Positions 3,397-63,772 of a DNA stretch of 64,000 nucleotides are shown piece after piece. The first letter of the stretch is position 1; each line of letters opens with the position of its first letter. The position numbers were made by a program, and so were the translations under genes. Origin of the DNA: Nannobrachium achirus (lineage: Eukaryota > Chordata > Actinopteri > Myctophiformes > Myctophidae); the NCBI GenBank assembly GCA_963921795.1, contig OY997643.1:13375543-13439542 (forward strand), read 5' to 3'. The notes beneath the pieces were generated by a model. The model did no database searches and was not told the DNA's origin. It saw only the letters and a program-made list of their open reading frames with translations.

Positions 3397-3747
3397 TATT
3401 AACTGGAGCTCAGTTAGTCTGTTCTTGAGAGACTACTATGTCAGGGGTTCTCAATCCTTTTCATGGGAAGGACCCCCAAAATGATATGTGTTTGGCCACG
3501 GACCCCCATCTCAAAATATTTAGTTCCAGGGACCACCCAGAAGCAAAATCTGAGTTACAAACGTTCGCTTTAAAAATACATACGTTCAAAGATTTGCACA
3601 CATTTTCACGACTTTTTCAAAAACAGCAGATCTACAAGCTCGCAGCGCGGCACTCGGTGCCGCGCTGTGAGCTTGTATATCTGCTATTTTTCAATAGTTA
3701 AAGCATTCAATAATCCCAGGCCTAGATCCCAGGCCTAAATGGGTTAA
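3397..3747 (-). mobile_element. family A MITE, 5'-truncated copy
   Basis: This is the reverse-orientation right half of the A family. It holds the inner GGTTCTCAA block, the GGACCCCCAAAATGAT segment, one hairpin (3621-3692) and the conserved end CCTAAATGGGTTAA. The other half is missing because the long-TIR transposon abuts at 3396. Confidence 0.8.
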
Positions 3748-4211
3748 TCATCTTCCTTCATTCACCGGCCTCCGCTGAGTGAGTCTAACCTCTGTACTTC
3801 ACAGATATTTCCTTTCTTTTCCACATCTCTCACTTTCTTCCAATCTTTGTCTCGCTCTCTTCCTTTCCCTCCAGTGCAATGTTTTATAGAGTGAGAATTT
3901 AGTTACTAAAGTGGCAACTCCCCGGCTGTTAAACAGAGTTGTTCGGAGCGAGAGAACAATACTGGACACGGATTTGTATCGGGAGAGAGACACAGCGGCT
4001 GTCAGGGAGTTTTTAAATCAGCAGCTATCTTTGCACTATTGGGGGGGGAGGATCATTCGTTAGCCAAAAGATGAGAAAAGCGTGCGAGGGACAGAGAAGA
4101 GATGGAGATAAGTAAACAGTGACAGAGGAGGTAAAAGACGGGGAGACCACGAGAGTACTGTAACAGACAGAGGAAGAAAGCGAGAGCGCGGATGTTGGCG
4201 AACGGTTCTGT
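3748..4211. other. no recognisable feature
   Basis: This lies between two inverted family A copies. I see no coding potential or repeat structure beyond a short poly-G. Confidence 0.5.
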
Positions 4212-4822
4212 TTAACCCATTTAGGGCCTAGAATTATCGAATGCTTTAACCAGTGAAAAATAGCAGATATACAAGCTCACAGCGCGGCACCGAGTGCCGC
4301 GCTGCGAGCTTGTAGATCTGCTATTTTTGAAACAGTCGTGAAAATGTGTGCAAATCTTTGAATATAATGTATTTTCAAAGCGAACGTTTGTAACTCAAAT
4401 GTTGCTTCTGGGTGGTCCCTGGAACTAAATATTTTGAGATGCGGGTCCGTGGCCAAATACATATCATTTTGGGGGTCCTTCACTTGAAAAGGTTTGAGAA
4501 CCACTGACAAAGTAGTCTCTCAAAAACAGACTAACTGAGCTCCAGTTGAGTGAAAAGGACCTTTTCTTTGACGATGGCCGGCCAGATTGCTGACATAGAA
4601 ACATAGGGTTTTCAAAAAACCTTAGAAGGAAGGATTCAAAAGACACTCATAGAATCGAGTCAAAATTCTAAATTTCACGATTTTTCAAAAATAGCAGATC
4701 TACAAGCTCGCAGCGCGGCACTCGGTGCCGCGCTGTGAGCTTGTATATCTGCTATTTTTCAATAGTTAAAGCATAAAATAATGATACACAATAATGTGTA
4801 CCCCGTTCTGAATGGGTTTTAA
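4212..4822 (+). mobile_element. family A MITE, full length, TTAA ends
   Basis: The element runs from TTAACCCATTTAGGGCC to GTTCTGAATGGGTTTTAA. Both ends carry TTAA, the target site of piggyBac-type transposases. There are two subterminal palindromes: 4256-4328 with central GCACCGAGTGC, and 4687-4759 with central GCACTCGGTGC. The middle contains the GGTTTGAGAACCACTGAC block shared by all A copies. There is no ORF, so it is non-autonomous. The piggyBac affiliation rests only on TTAA and the CCC-starting ends. Confidence 0.75.
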
Positions 4823-5731
4823 CACGGCAGCCGAGACACAAACACAGACTGAGCCAGTGATTGGTTGCTTGTGGATGGGTCTTGGCAGGGGCTGCAGCGA
4901 CAGCTGTTTGGAAATGATGGGAGCTCCCAGAGAAGAGAGGGACCACAGCAACTCACCCAAATTACCGTGAAATTCCTCTTGCTCTGGCCCATTTTCTCCA
5001 CACCGTCTCCGACACGCGGCGAGTGAAAAATAGGAGGCCGCACCAAATCAACAAAGGAAAAAGAAAAGAGAAAGAAAAGAAAACACATTAGGGTATTTGA
5101 TATTACTTATTGCTTTAAGAAACATGTATTAATTGGGCTCCGTCTGTCCTACTGTATGTTCTCCTCTCCGCTGAGTCTCATTTGCAGGGGCTGCCTCGTT
5201 TTCACGCCTCCATCTCAGTCCACTGGGACAGATCATGAAGACATTAAGCCCGGAACGACAGAACAGAAATCCAAGCACGTGCGCTATTAATGTCGCAAAC
5301 ACAGGAAACGTCAATAAGTGTGTTTTATCATAAATAAATCTGTTTATTATGGTCTTCCTGCACAATTCAAACAGTTTTGTACAAAGGCTCACAAAAGCGA
5401 AACGCTAATCAGAGTGGTAATTGGTCTGCAGCTACATGCTAAAATGTTAATCTAGTGGAAATTATCTGCTGGGAATATGGTGTTGTAGCTCCAGATGGAT
5501 GGGATTTATTGATGACCTGATGGAGGTTTGTGTACCAAAACATTGTTTCTGTTCCCTGTGAATTGGTTGTAATTGCAAGTGAAGACAGGAGTCCTTTCTT
5601 CTAGCGCCAGATGGATTGGAGAACCAACATGAGGCACTCATTTGTTTTGCCCAACACTTTTGGCTTACAGTAGTTTAGTGCATTCAAGATGAAGTGTTCC
5701 ATTCACAGGAGTGCTTGTCAAGACCACGGTT
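4823..5731. other. no recognisable feature
   Basis: Ordinary AT-rich sequence. The open frames here are short and unsupported. Confidence 0.5.
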
Positions 5732-5854
5732 ACATGCTGCCATTCAGACATCCCCCATTCAGACACTAACCTTACACCTAACCCTAACCTCAATGGAAGT
5801 GTTGCCACTCAGACAATTAGAAGTCAATGTCTGAATGGCAACATGTCTGAATGG
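5732..5854. mobile_element. family G MITE, copy 1
   Basis: Ends GCTGCCATTCAGACA and TGTCTGAATGGCAACATG are inverted repeats. The middle includes a telomere-like CCTAACCCTAACC stretch. A second copy lies at 6151-6287 and an inverted third at 39659-39788. Confidence 0.65.
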
Positions 5855-6113
5855 AGAGTGTATAACCAACAGATGCCCCCTGAGCGCCTTCCTAGGAAGG
5901 TCCTCGATGCACGTCCCACTGGGAGGAGACCCCGTGGCAGACCTAATACAAGATGGAAGGATTATATCTCCAAATTGGCCTGGGAACGCCTCGGTATACT
6001 ACCAGGGGGAGTGGAGGAAGTTGCTCAGGATAAGGAAATCTGGAAGTCTCAGTTGGAACTGTTACCCCCGCGACCAGATTCCGGATAAGCGGTTGAAGAT
6101 GGATGGATGGATG
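5855..6113 (+). pseudogene. LINE 3' end fragment (non-LTR retrotransposon)
   Basis: The frame at 5855-6088 encodes a C-terminal segment with GRRPRGRPNTRWKDYI, LAWERLG and LLPPRPDSG before a stop. These are the hallmarks of the extreme C-terminus of a reverse transcriptase ORF common in fish LINEs. It is followed by (ATGG)n at about 6098-6113, the usual short-repeat tail of such elements. Only about 80 codons remain, so this is a 5'-truncated insertion. It sits between two G-family MITE copies. Confidence 0.75.
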
Positions 6114-6150
6114 GACATACCGGTACTCATTCCAAGGGGTACATCCCCCT

Positions 6151-61839: not shown

Positions 61840-62301
61840 GTGGTGCCCCAGTGATGCAGAATTTATCAGTTGACTCATTCACAGGTCATGAAATACATTG
61901 AAGAATCATAGTTAAACCGCATATTGAATAGGATTACACCTTTTTCCTAATTAGTCCAGCAGTAGCCGGTTGTTAAGGTCTTATAGCCGACTACAACCCC
62001 CCTTTTTTTTTAAATGAGTTAGTCTTTGCCATAATGTTTCACACTGCATGAATTATCTCTTGTGAAATAAGCACTGGACTCAATGATCTGTTTAATGCTT
62101 AAGTGATGGTATATTTCAATTACCATATATTATCCCACAATCCACTCCGGATCATTGCCTTCAGTGACAGCCTGCATGGTCCCATGTGTGGGACTGTGGA
62201 AAGGGAGAAAAGACATTTCTTCTTCTTTTTCTTTCTTCTTGGAGAGAAGACATTGTGCTCTGTTCTGCTATGGATGAAAGGGTTTGGGTTCTCCTCTCAA
62301 C

Positions 62302-62824
62302 CAGGGGCGTCACAAGGGTGGGGGGGAAAAGTGGGACTGAGTTACTAGGGCCCAAGGTGGAGGAGGGGCCTGGAATTATTTTATACTTTAGCTATTGAAA
62401 AATAGCAGATATACAAGCTCACAGCGCGGCACCGAGTGCCGCGCTGCGAGCTTGTAGATCTGCTATTTTTTTAAAGTCGTGAAGATCTTCATAAACGAAC
62501 ATTTTGTAACTCAGATTTTGCTTCTGGGGGGTGGTCACTGGAACTAAATATTTTGAGATGGAGGTCCATGGCCATCATTTTTCATTTTGGGGGTCCTTCA
62601 CATGAAAAAGTTTGAACACCACTGACATAGAAACATAGAAACATATAAAAACGTTAGGATTTGAAATATCCAAAGACTTGTACAAATGTTCACGATTTTT
62701 CAAAAATAGCAGATGAGTGCCGCGCTGCATGCGAGCTTGTAGATCTGCTATTTTTCAATAGCTAAAGCACAAAATGTGAGTGAATCCTTGTACCCAGGGC
62801 CCAGAATTTGGTGCGACACTCCTG
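62302..62824 (+). mobile_element. family I MITE with A core, right end inverted
   Basis: Ends CAGGGGCGTCACAAGG and GGTGCGACACTCCTG; flanks CTCTCAAC and CTCTCAGC match at 7 of 8. Hairpins 62399-62470 (complete) and 62705-62755 (one arm shortened). Confidence 0.78.
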
Positions 62825-63028
62825 CTCTCAGCAGAGAGGAAGAAGAAGAAGCACAACGAGATGGTGTGATGAGGTGTCAGGGAAAGTGAGCTAGTGAGCC
62901 CTGGCTCTCCTTGTACCGGCTTTGGTTTTTTACACTTCAGATTTTCGTCTGGGTTTTTTCACTCGATGCGAGTCACACATGCAGGGAGGGGGATGTGTGC
63001 TGCTAGCATCTAACGCCTCCTGCCCCAT

Positions 63029-63192
63029 TCTCTCTCTCTCTCTCTCTCTCTCTCTCTCTCTCTCTCTCTGTCTGTCTCTCTGTCTCTCTCTCTCTCTCTC
63101 TCTCTCTCTCTCTCTCTCTCTCTCTCTCTCTCTCTCTCTCTCTCTCTCTCGCTCTCTCTCTCTCTCTCTCTCTCTCTCTCTCTCTCTCTCTC
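63029..63192. repeat. (CT)n microsatellite, about 80 units
   Basis: A long polypyrimidine run with a few G interruptions. Confidence 0.98.
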
Positions 63193-63249
63193 TTATAGAG
63201 CTTTGATTTCACTTTGAATAAAACACAGAAATACGGTGAAACATATACA

Positions 63250-63772
63250 TTAACTCGGTTAGACCGTGACACTGTGTACGCATTATTGCATATCATTTTA
63301 TGCTTAAAAATAGCAGATATACAAGCTCACAGCGTGTCACCGGGTGCTGGGCTGCAAGGTTGTAGATTTGCTATTTTTTTAAACATCTTGAAAATGTGTG
63401 CAATTCTTTGAATATTTTGACCGTATTCTATAAGTGTCTTCTGAATCCTTCTAAGGTTTTTTGAAAAAGATATGTTTCTATGTCAGCAGTGCTCTAACCT
63501 TTTCATGTGAAGGACCCCCAAAATGATATGTATTTGGCCATGGACCCCCATCTCAAAATATTGCATCAGGGACCGCCCAGAAGCATGAGCTACAATTGTT
63601 CGCTTTAAAATATATATATATATTCAAAGATTTGCACAAATCGTCATGATTTAAAAAAAAATAGCAGATCTACAAGCTTGCAGCGCGGCACTCGGTGCCG
63701 CGCTGTGAGCTTGTAGATCAGCTATTTTTCAATAGTTAAAGCATTCAGTAATTCTTGGCCTAAATGGCTTAA
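63250..63772 (-). mobile_element. family A MITE, diverged
   Basis: TTAACTCGGTTAGACCG to CCTAAATGGCTTAA. First hairpin (63308-63378) diverged, second (63661-63730) complete. Confidence 0.7.

What the first reader, a model, noticed from the sequence alone, without database searches (positions are those of the whole stretch)
3619..63730. One palindromic hairpin module recurs about 45 times inside unrelated MITE families
Seen: TAGCnGATCTACAwGC and its inverse form 60-75 bp near-perfect palindromes at, for example, 4256, 11118, 15593, 23050, 38177, 42852, 43638, 44807, 45793, 55787, 56843 and 60808. They sit in families whose ends and target duplications differ: TTAA-flanked A, hAT-like B, C, E, H, I, L, and ATAT-ended D. 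Known: MITE families normally share internal sequence only with their own parent element. Inference: the palindrome is either a small mobile module that inserts into other MITEs, a sequence repeatedly captured by transposase ends, or an origin-like or regulatory hairpin kept by selection or gene conversion. I know of no described system of this kind.
Basis: partly seen in the sequence, partly recalled or inferred. Interest (0 to 1): 0.88.

Follow-up and report, generated by a model that had tools for sequence, protein, structure and literature searches.

The report
Hairpin passenger shared by unrelated transposons
A roughly 75-base hairpin occurs hundreds of thousands of times in this animal genome, carried inside short jumping genes whose ends are unrelated, and it looks mostly like a passenger handed on when one jumping gene lands inside another.

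Summary
The core occurs 87 times in the window (<=3 mismatches; 2.3 expected) and at 317,736 exact sites in the 1.66 Gb genome, reversed control 0. It is the arm of a near-perfect hairpin, mostly 63-81 bp, usually with a 3-nt loop. Hosts with recognisable ends and target duplications include hAT-type (8 bp), TTAA and ATAT elements. In copies sampled by a flank, not by the module, private substitutions are as frequent in the module as beside it (C 45/1304 vs 26/954; H 28/1258 vs 41/1669). So single copies do not look preserved by selection or gene conversion; earlier contrary counts came from module-selected samples. Handover by nesting is visible: B and C lie inside hAT-type elements, A-type hairpins occur with TTAA or hAT ends, and 12 of 20 sampled C copies run into a hAT-like element with C's own end lost. 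Arms covary between contexts (18 of 35 pairs). The ultimate source was not found; a tiny TA-inserting hairpin is possible but unproven. Closest published case seen: coral CMITEs (PMC2872659).

The parts
4216..4816 (.). Family A element: CCCATTTAGG.../...AATGGG ends, TTAA on the left, two hairpin modules
   Evidence: read from the sequence; modules; the right TTAA is preceded by two extra T (TTTTAA)
3619..3691 (.). hairpin module, family A type
4256..4328 (.). hairpin module, family A
   Evidence: folds at -38.1 kcal/mol
4687..4759 (.). hairpin module, family A, second of the same element
8533..8596 (.). hairpin module, D-like flanks, inside CAGGGTTCCCACAC-like ends with 6 matching duplication bases
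11076..11277 (.). Family B element, TTAA|CCACTTGAACC ends, module 11117-11188
11890..11948 (.). module with an unrelated left flank and a family C right flank: breakpoint at the hairpin edge
12367..12438 (.). degenerate module; its flanks recur elsewhere at 95-100% identity, about 70 bp apart
15506..15707 (.). Family B element (TTAA), module 15594-15667
19324..19601 (.). hAT-type element CAGGGGTCTTCAAC, TSD CTGTAAAC, with remnant of module and B end
22100..22493 (.). hAT-type element D, TSD TTGTATAG, shortened module 22227-22262
22950..23206 (.). Family C element, ATAT|CGTCGTTGTCGGGT ends, module 23055-23127
38178..38248 (.). hairpin module, D-type flank, in 37780-38342 with TSD CACAGTCC (2 TIR mismatches)
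38600..38671 (.). hairpin module, family A
40394..40466 (.). hairpin module, family C; perfect 35-bp stem, 3-nt loop
41579..41651 (.). hairpin module, family C
42852..42925 (.). hairpin module, family F, inside TAGGGATGGGACGA ends (duplication ACACACAC, low complexity)
43639..43716 (.). hairpin module, family F
44531..45002 (.). hAT-type element TAG(A/G)GCATTCAC, TSD ACCAGTGC, module 44809-44881
45651..46076 (.). hAT-type element (TAGGGGTCTTCAAC..., TSD GCGTAATG/GCGTAACG) with a family B element nested inside
45749..45905 (.). nested family B element (TTAA), module 45794-45864
46568..46640 (.). hairpin module, family A
48752..49179 (.). hAT-type element D, TSD CTCTAAGC, partial module
50435..50507 (.). 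hairpin module, family A
51821..51893 (.). hairpin module, family A
53246..53511 (.). hAT-type element CAGGGG(T/C)GTC, perfect TSD GGTTTGAA (2 TIR mismatches), holding a partial A-type module
53660..53732 (.). hairpin module, family A
54088..54160 (.). hairpin module, family A
55785..55857 (.). hairpin module, family B
56703..57153 (.). hAT-type element D (CAGTGGTTCTCAACC), perfect 8-bp TSD GTCTAGCA, module 56841-56912
57697..57769 (.). hairpin module, family A
58124..58196 (.). hairpin module, family A
59852..59924 (.). hairpin module, family A interior within CAGGGGTGTCACAC/TTGTGACGCCCCTG ends; no exact duplication
60703..60960 (.). Family C element (ATAT), module 60808-60880
62398..62470 (.). 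hairpin module, family A
63657..63729 (.). hairpin module, family A

Best explanation
The module is a hairpin passenger of short non-autonomous DNA transposons. SHOWN: it sits in hosts with unrelated ends; module-bearing elements nest inside other elements; some nested ones have lost an end while the outer end remains; in two families a copy, once inserted, mutates at the same rate as its flanks. INFERRED: repeated cycles of nesting, co-amplification and loss of the inner ends moved the hairpin from host to host until little but the hairpin (edge about GAAAATAGC...GCTATTTTC) remained in common; the two arms are kept alike within each lineage by hairpin template switching (quasi-palindrome correction) in amplifying master copies. 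Its origin is unknown; it may have begun as a tiny TA-flanked palindromic element, or as a unit of the 45-bp tandem array found in one hAT-type family.
For: Target duplications of different kinds in the window: GTCTAGCA, TTGTATAG, CTCTAAGC, CTGTAAAC, ACCAGTGC, GGTTTGAA (8 bp, exact), TTAA (3 B elements), ATAT (2 C elements). Nesting: B in hAT-type 45651-46076, C in hAT-type L013:4687-5116 (TSD CTATCTGG), A-type module in hAT-type 53246-53511. Of 20 copies taken by a C flank, 11 carry a junction from a truncated C right flank to other sequence and 11 reach a hAT-like end (10 both, 12 either); 6 keep a recognisable C right flank, 2 neither. Equal private substitution rates in module and flank in C and H. 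Outside the edge little is shared: 64 contexts from 381 ends, 0.66 bit at the first base, at most 0.28 at the next eleven. Arms covary: 18 of 35 pairs changed on both sides, shuffles 4.0 +/- 1.5, 0 of 500 as high. In 3 of 5 modules tested the flanks recur at 90-100% identity around degenerate modules, so an intact hairpin seems not to be needed to amplify.
Against: No complete series from an intact nested element to a bare hairpin was traced; the C-hAT case is one step. Counting subfamily differences, H modules differ at 42/1258 and H flanks at 179/1669, so between master lineages the module changes less than its surroundings, which a pure passenger need not do. One module (L012:1858-1931) lies in flanks for which no second copy was found (40 of 68 candidates scored). 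The variable arm site (TAGC-N-GATC) is unpaired in 9 of 15 contexts, against continuous arm correction.
Confidence: 0.5

Rival explanations
1. The hairpin is, or was, itself a minimal mobile element: a 77-81 bp self-complementary unit that inserts at TA, into other transposons as into anything else.
For: TA precedes the GTG edge in 9 of 14 loci chosen by GTGAAAATAGC...ACGCG, though these 9 fall into few families (by eye mostly one new family, two H, one C-like). In 14 CAC-edged contexts 7 have TA, against 3 of 50 other contexts, background 0.073. Little shared sequence outside the edge. The predicted empty junction with one TA exists 22 times for family C and once for H (L093). One module in flanks without a second copy found (L012).
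Against: A, B, D, F, J and K edges are not TA. The other 7 CAC-edged contexts have AA, mostly D relatives, and contexts are module sides, not families. TA is its own reverse complement, so it may just be part of the palindrome. The C junction lies between 4-bp direct repeats (TAGT), which slippage at a hairpin base would also use; six other module-less H copies have six other junctions. No standalone copy with a proven target duplication; no transposase found.
Confidence: 0.2
2. The hairpin is a cis-acting element (transposition enhancer, promoter part, small-RNA source) that host transposons need, so it is kept in master copies while ends are exchanged.
For: Between H subfamilies the module differs less than flanks (42/1258 vs 179/1669); presence in many numerous families; a tandem array of the same arm in hAT-type elements resembles sub-terminal binding repeats (recalled). 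CMITE authors proposed a role in transposition for their conserved interior (PMC2872659).
Against: Degenerate modules in families whose flanks recur at 90-100% (the modules of those other copies were not read). Position differs: single and interior in B, C and H, two per element in A. No Rfam match in the window. No difference in private substitutions in C and H.
Confidence: 0.13
3. All hosts descend from one ancestral element whose ends diversified; the hairpin is simply inherited.
For: B and F share about 25 bp of flank, and D and the element at 44531-45002 share flank stretches (by eye); A interiors occur with several ends.
Against: C, D, H and J share no flank that I could recognise beyond the edge, while their modules remain alignable. 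hAT, TTAA and ATAT ends need different transposases (established knowledge).
Confidence: 0.1
4. Ongoing ectopic gene conversion among modules homogenises them, sparing the flanks.
For: Module-selected samples looked more conserved than flanks in A, B and C1 groups and in H; similar A/C variants at the N site occur in several families (by eye).
Against: The flank-selected samples show no difference. The earlier samples were chosen by the module itself, and even there C2, D1 and D2 showed no significant difference.
Confidence: 0.04

Closest known systems
CMITE elements of Acropora corals (Wang et al. 2010, PMC2872659; abstract and sections 10, 13, 14 read)
   Same: MITE families with different terminal repeats share a 75-base interior more conserved than the ends; tandem arrays; a new element assembled by nested insertion.
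   Different: CMITEs are about 100 bp, TTAA-flanked and piggyBac-like, about 1,600 copies estimated in A. millepora, and the sections I read do not describe the interior as a palindrome. Here hosts are of at least three target-duplication types and exact core sites number 317,736.
Angel elements of teleosts (Izsvak et al. 1999, recalled; passages in PMC3636048 seen)
   Same: High-copy DNA transposons whose long inverted repeats can form a stem-loop; compensatory substitutions between arms reported in two zebrafish lncRNA copies.
   Different: Angel is one transposon family; sequence relationship was not tested here (no Angel sequence in the tools).
hAT-superfamily MITEs
   Same: Hosts such as D and H have 8-bp target duplications and CAG/TAG ends.
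   Different: The hairpin is interior, not a hAT end, and occurs also in TTAA and ATAT elements.
piggyBac-type transposon ends (PMC11707139, passages seen)
   Same: TTAA hosts; palindromes within the transposon ends (19 bp in piggyBac, imperfect ones in piggyBat).
   Different: Those palindromes are short transposase-binding sites; this one is mostly 63-81 bp and interior in B and C.
Repetitive extragenic palindromes and other mobile palindromes (recalled; listings only)
   Same: Short, very numerous hairpins found in many contexts.
   Different: REPs are bacterial, with REP-associated transposases; no such protein was looked for here.

Membership tests
hAT-type non-autonomous element (host D, 56703-57153) | 8-bp target site duplication | tested here: met
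   GTCTAGCA on both sides, 0 mismatches
hAT-type non-autonomous element (host D, 56703-57153) | short terminal inverted repeats starting (C/T)AG | tested here: met
   CAGTGGTTCTCAACC / GGTTGAGAACCACTG; the typical letters of hAT ends are recalled
hAT-type non-autonomous element (host D, 56703-57153) | mobilised by a hAT transposase with the same ends | tested here: inconclusive
   150 of 1,653 candidate hAT dimerisation domains scored; 3' flanks of 20 of the 150 fetched: paired modules in 2 of 20 (L112, L129), three more with a lone weak core, none with a host end that I could match
TTAA (piggyBac-like) MITE (hosts A, B) | TTAA target duplication | tested here: met
   3 B elements in the window with TTAA on both sides; for A the left TTAA is clear, the right one altered at 4816
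TTAA (piggyBac-like) MITE (hosts A, B) | piggyBac transposase partner | not tested
   no search made
Tc1/mariner-type MITE (the hairpin itself) | TA target duplication | tested here: inconclusive
   TA at GTG edges in 9 of 14 loci, few independent families; absent at other edges; TA is self-complementary
Tc1/mariner-type MITE (the hairpin itself) | terminal repeats shared with an autonomous Tc1/mariner element | not tested
   no search made
Helitron end hairpin | no terminal inverted repeats or target duplication in the host, hairpin next to a CTRR 3' end (recalled) | tested here: not met
   hosts found have inverted repeats and duplications and the hairpin is interior
CMITE-like group | interior more conserved between families than the terminal repeats | tested here: met
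   module alignable across 15 contexts, mean column identity 87%, flanks nearly without shared sequence
CMITE-like group | sequence homology to coral CMITE | not testable with these tools
   no CMITE sequence held; the sections read give only terminal repeats
Angel | sequence homology to the Angel consensus | not testable with these tools
   no Repbase/Dfam
Known structured RNA | match to an Rfam family at gathering score | tested here: not met
   0 matches in the window

The most novel reading that the evidence does not exclude
The hairpin is itself a transposon reduced to almost nothing: a 77-81 bp perfect palindrome that inserted at TA by an unknown transposase and spread through this genome by repeatedly entering, and riding in, transposons of several other superfamilies.
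Probability: 0.2. Interest if true: 0.75.

Novelty: new variant of a known kind. Interest (0 to 1): 0.5.

Why it matters
It is a very large case of one interior passing between transposons with incompatible ends, so it lets one ask how MITEs get their interiors, how nested composites shed the inner ends, and whether a palindrome gives any advantage. The flank-selected test in two families suggests no protection of single copies. If the hairpin proves mobile on its own, it would be among the smallest transposable units known (recalled, not searched).

Tried and rejected
Conservation by gene conversion or selection on copies: seemed strong in most groups picked by the module (A_in, A_out, C1, B significant; C2, D1, D2 not; H outer arms 2/480 vs flanks 168/2275), vanished in samples picked by a flank; rejected for C and H. 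In the H sample I dropped 2 of 20 rows: L087 (left half unrelated) and L075 (near-duplicate of L074). In C none was dropped, including L057, which aligns badly. Deletions of 4 bp or more were not clearly commoner in the module (6/20 and 8/18 copies) than in flanks (4/20 and 6/18), so I do not claim that the hairpin is deletion-prone.

Empty sites: in the local sample 11 alignments span a joined junction, and those I read are collapsed or deleted A copies; none spans for L018, L024, L012 and L026 (40 of 1,634 candidates scored). For H, 12 matches span the joined query (40 of 1,430 scored); 7 of the 12 have lost all or nearly all of the module, with 7 different junctions, 5 keep more.

Autonomous partner: around one array (L102) and its 3.5-kb continuation (L107, frames listed), and two arrays followed to 4.6-5.0 kb, I saw no transposase-like frame by eye; no homology search was run on them. 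One array element is complete at about 1.6 kb with TSD CACATACC. The 3' flanks of 20 of 150 scored hAT domains show no link.

Viral contigs: a 20-base pattern, no match. Phages: one module, no match. Rfam, window: none. Literature; six 17-19-base stretches of the module are in no held paper.

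
Full report
What is there. The window is G000:C6:13375543-13439542 of a 1.66 Gb, 564-contig genome. The contigs I met with low numbers are about 55-90 Mb long, which suggests a chromosome-level animal assembly; a fish is my guess and was not tested. The core TAGCNGATCTACAWGC is found 87 times in the window with up to 3 mismatches against 2.3 expected, and exactly 158,843 times forward and 158,893 times reverse in the genome, reversed-pattern control 0. 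Paired cores give 35 hairpins in the window, most with a 63-bp core, and 17 unpaired cores. A profile built from 51 modules of the window and sampled loci finds 48 in the window, 68 in 20 random 10-kb stretches (200 kb) and 17 in the eight loci near the start of contig 1. Scaled up, the random rate means roughly half a million modules and fragments; the stretches came from the first 12 Mb of contigs 1-20, so this is rough. The five modules folded as DNA have z of -12.8 to -16.9.

Module anatomy. Majority sequence of 15 contexts: AAAATAGCAGATCTACAAGCTCACAACGCGTCGCAnnGCGACGCGTTGTGAGCTTGTAGATCGGCTATTTT. A search for the perfect inner part with a free 3-nt loop gives 2,985 + 3,012 places; among those listed the loop varies (the arms are fixed by the pattern). 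Between contexts the arms change together: 18 of 35 pairs show a change on both sides, 24 of 507 cells, against shuffled means 4.0 and 6.7, none of 500 shuffles as high, and at most 5 pairs when one arm is slid. The exception is the N site, unpaired in 9 of 15. I chose the 15 rows by hand, and two pairs of rows (F/F2, G/G2) are related families. Arm identity within a family, with different arms between families, fits copying of one arm onto the other in master copies; that step is inference. A published parallel is compensatory change in Angel stems, read by its authors as selection (PMC3636048, passages).

Hosts. Inverted ends flanked by exact or near-exact duplications were sought within 900 bp of each module. 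In the window: hAT-type elements with 8-bp duplications at 56703-57153, 22100-22493, 48752-49179, 19324-19601, 44531-45002, 45651-46076 (1 mismatch in the duplication) and 53246-53511; a weaker one at 37780-38342; TTAA elements with CCACTTGAACC ends (B) at 45749-45905, 11076-11277 and 15506-15707; ATAT elements with CGTCGTTGTCGGGT ends (C) at 22950-23206 and 60703-60960. Several other rows are plainly not hosts (matches of module to module or of A to A). Elsewhere: a hAT-type host with TAGGGCTGTCACAATTATTA ends and duplication GTCATTGA (H, L043), and one with CAGTGTTG...CAACACTG ends (J, L047; duplication not exact by eye). Family A carries two modules in inverted orientation.

Edges. I anchored 381 module ends on the arm and merged them into 64 contexts (sides, not families; the merging is imperfect). 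Outside TTTT the first base has 0.66 bit and the next eleven at most 0.28. Conservation inside is by construction; the fall outside is the result. Fourteen contexts continue with CAC: 7 are followed by TA and 7 by AA; of 50 other contexts 3 have TA there; background 0.073. An earlier count on 52 contexts gave TA at that place in 12, p 0.0006, but other places also reached 0.02 and 0.002. Of 14 loci picked by GTGAAAATAGCNGATCTACAAGCTCACAACGCG (single-looking places), 9 have TA before GTG, 1 AA, 2 TG (family J), 2 TT (tandem array); the 9 belong to few families. This is the main support for a TA-inserting origin; TA is self-complementary and may be the outermost pair of the palindrome.

Is it preserved in place? 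Samples selected by the module mostly showed fewer substitutions in it than in flanks (with C2, D1 and D2 as exceptions; H outer arms 2/480 vs flanks 168/2275; J less clear, 16/240 vs 153/1131, where two J rows have rearranged edges). That selection is biased, so I took copies by a flank alone: a 29-mer of C (6,087 exact copies; first 20 listed fetched) and a 40-mer of H (1,708 copies; first 20 fetched). Private substitutions: C module 45/1304, flank 26/954, p 0.39; H module 28/1258, flank 41/1669, p 0.71 (20 of 20 C rows, 18 of 20 H rows). All substitutions: C 79/1304 vs 49/954, p 0.36; H 42/1258 vs 179/1669, p 7e-15, which reflects H subfamilies whose flanks differ more than their module. 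So copies of these two families decay like their flanks, while at least in H the module differs less between master lineages.

How it moves between hosts. B lies intact inside a hAT-type element (45651-46076), C inside another (L013:4687-5116), and an A-type module inside a third with a perfect duplication (53246-53511). Among 20 flank-selected C copies, 11 have a junction from a truncated C right flank to other sequence and 11 reach the hAT-like end CAGTGGTTGAG (10 both, 12 either); 6 keep a recognisable C right flank, 2 neither. The outer element seems to have taken over and the inner end is gone. At 11890 a C right half abuts unrelated DNA at the hairpin edge. Both flanks of 41 of 68 random-sample modules have a relative within the loci held, one flank in 15, none in 12; in the window 40, 6 and 2 of 48. 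Of five 'none' cases tested genome-wide, three have flanks repeated at 90-100% identity at about module spacing, plus spanning matches at 73-84% (L011:7330, window 12367, L010:5475), with degenerate modules here; L028 and L015 gave only themselves, but 40 of 1,680 candidates were scored. L012:1858 gave only itself, 40 of 68 scored; L026:8960 shares parts of its flanks with other places; L018:5200 has an unrelated repeat ending 16 bp to its left. L012 is the best candidate for a module outside a repeat.

Module-less copies. For H, 12 matches span a query with the module removed. Read one by one, seven have lost all or nearly all of it with seven different junctions, five keep more; one (L093) has exactly one TA left, and that junction, searched with two free bases, is found once in the genome. 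For C the equivalent junction exists 22 times, 19 with A and 3 with C at the free base; it lies between 4-bp direct repeats, as slippage at a hairpin base would give, but it is also the predicted empty site. I could not fetch these 22.

A tandem relative. Places of GTGAAAATAGC... spaced 45 bp apart led to arrays of four to six direct copies of about GAAAATAGCCGATCTACAAGCTCACAACGCGTCGCGGTGCGTTGTG in six loci, most of them with a TAGGGCTGTCACGATTAGG hAT-type end nearby (L101-L106, two of them identical over 1 kb); one is a complete element of about 1.6 kb with duplication CACATACC. The unit is one arm plus a shortened copy of the inner palindrome. Whether array gave palindrome or the reverse is open.

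Comparison. Coral CMITEs (PMC2872659; abstract, sections 10, 13 and 14 read) are the nearest described case I saw: six MITE families with different ends, a shared 75-base interior, tandem arrays, and a new element made by nesting; the authors also note ascertainment bias. The present case differs in scale, in crossing host types and in being a near-perfect hairpin. Homology to CMITE or Angel could not be tested. I rate it a new variant of a known kind.

Noticed in passing
L101-L106 (e.g. L102:955-1138): Tandem direct repeats, mostly 45 bp apart, of one module arm in hAT-type elements with TAGGGCTGTCACGATTAGG ends.
   Followed up: partly
window 26844-32753, minus strand: Long overlapping frames with reverse transcriptase (PF00078) and a tyrosine-recombinase match below cut-off (PF00589): looks like a DIRS-type retroelement (name recalled).
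   Followed up: partly
window 33287-35626, plus strand: 779-aa frame without a Pfam match at E 0.001 that looks like a Penelope-type element with a GIY-YIG-like end (recalled from motifs, not tested further).
   Followed up: no
window 47918-48075, 55000-55154; L021:7561-7724: Other long hairpins (scores 56-62) without the module core; by eye the 47918 and L021 ones are the same family.
   Followed up: no
window 51206-51259 and L018:4896-4949: A second recurrent palindrome, GCTAAGGTATGGCAAC...GTTGCCATACCTTAGC.
   Followed up: no
module site TAGC-N-GATC in several families: By eye the same A/C (sometimes T, G) variation at one arm position occurs in families B, C, D, F, H, J and a further one (L136-L141), often mismatched between the arms (9 of 15); unexplained.
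   Followed up: partly
L012:1187-1249: Variant hairpin whose changes from the consensus (TAGA, TATGAG) are present in both arms; about 600 bp from a second module.
   Followed up: partly
window 9087-9252: 39-bp tandem repeat, 4.3 copies, 96% matches.
   Followed up: no
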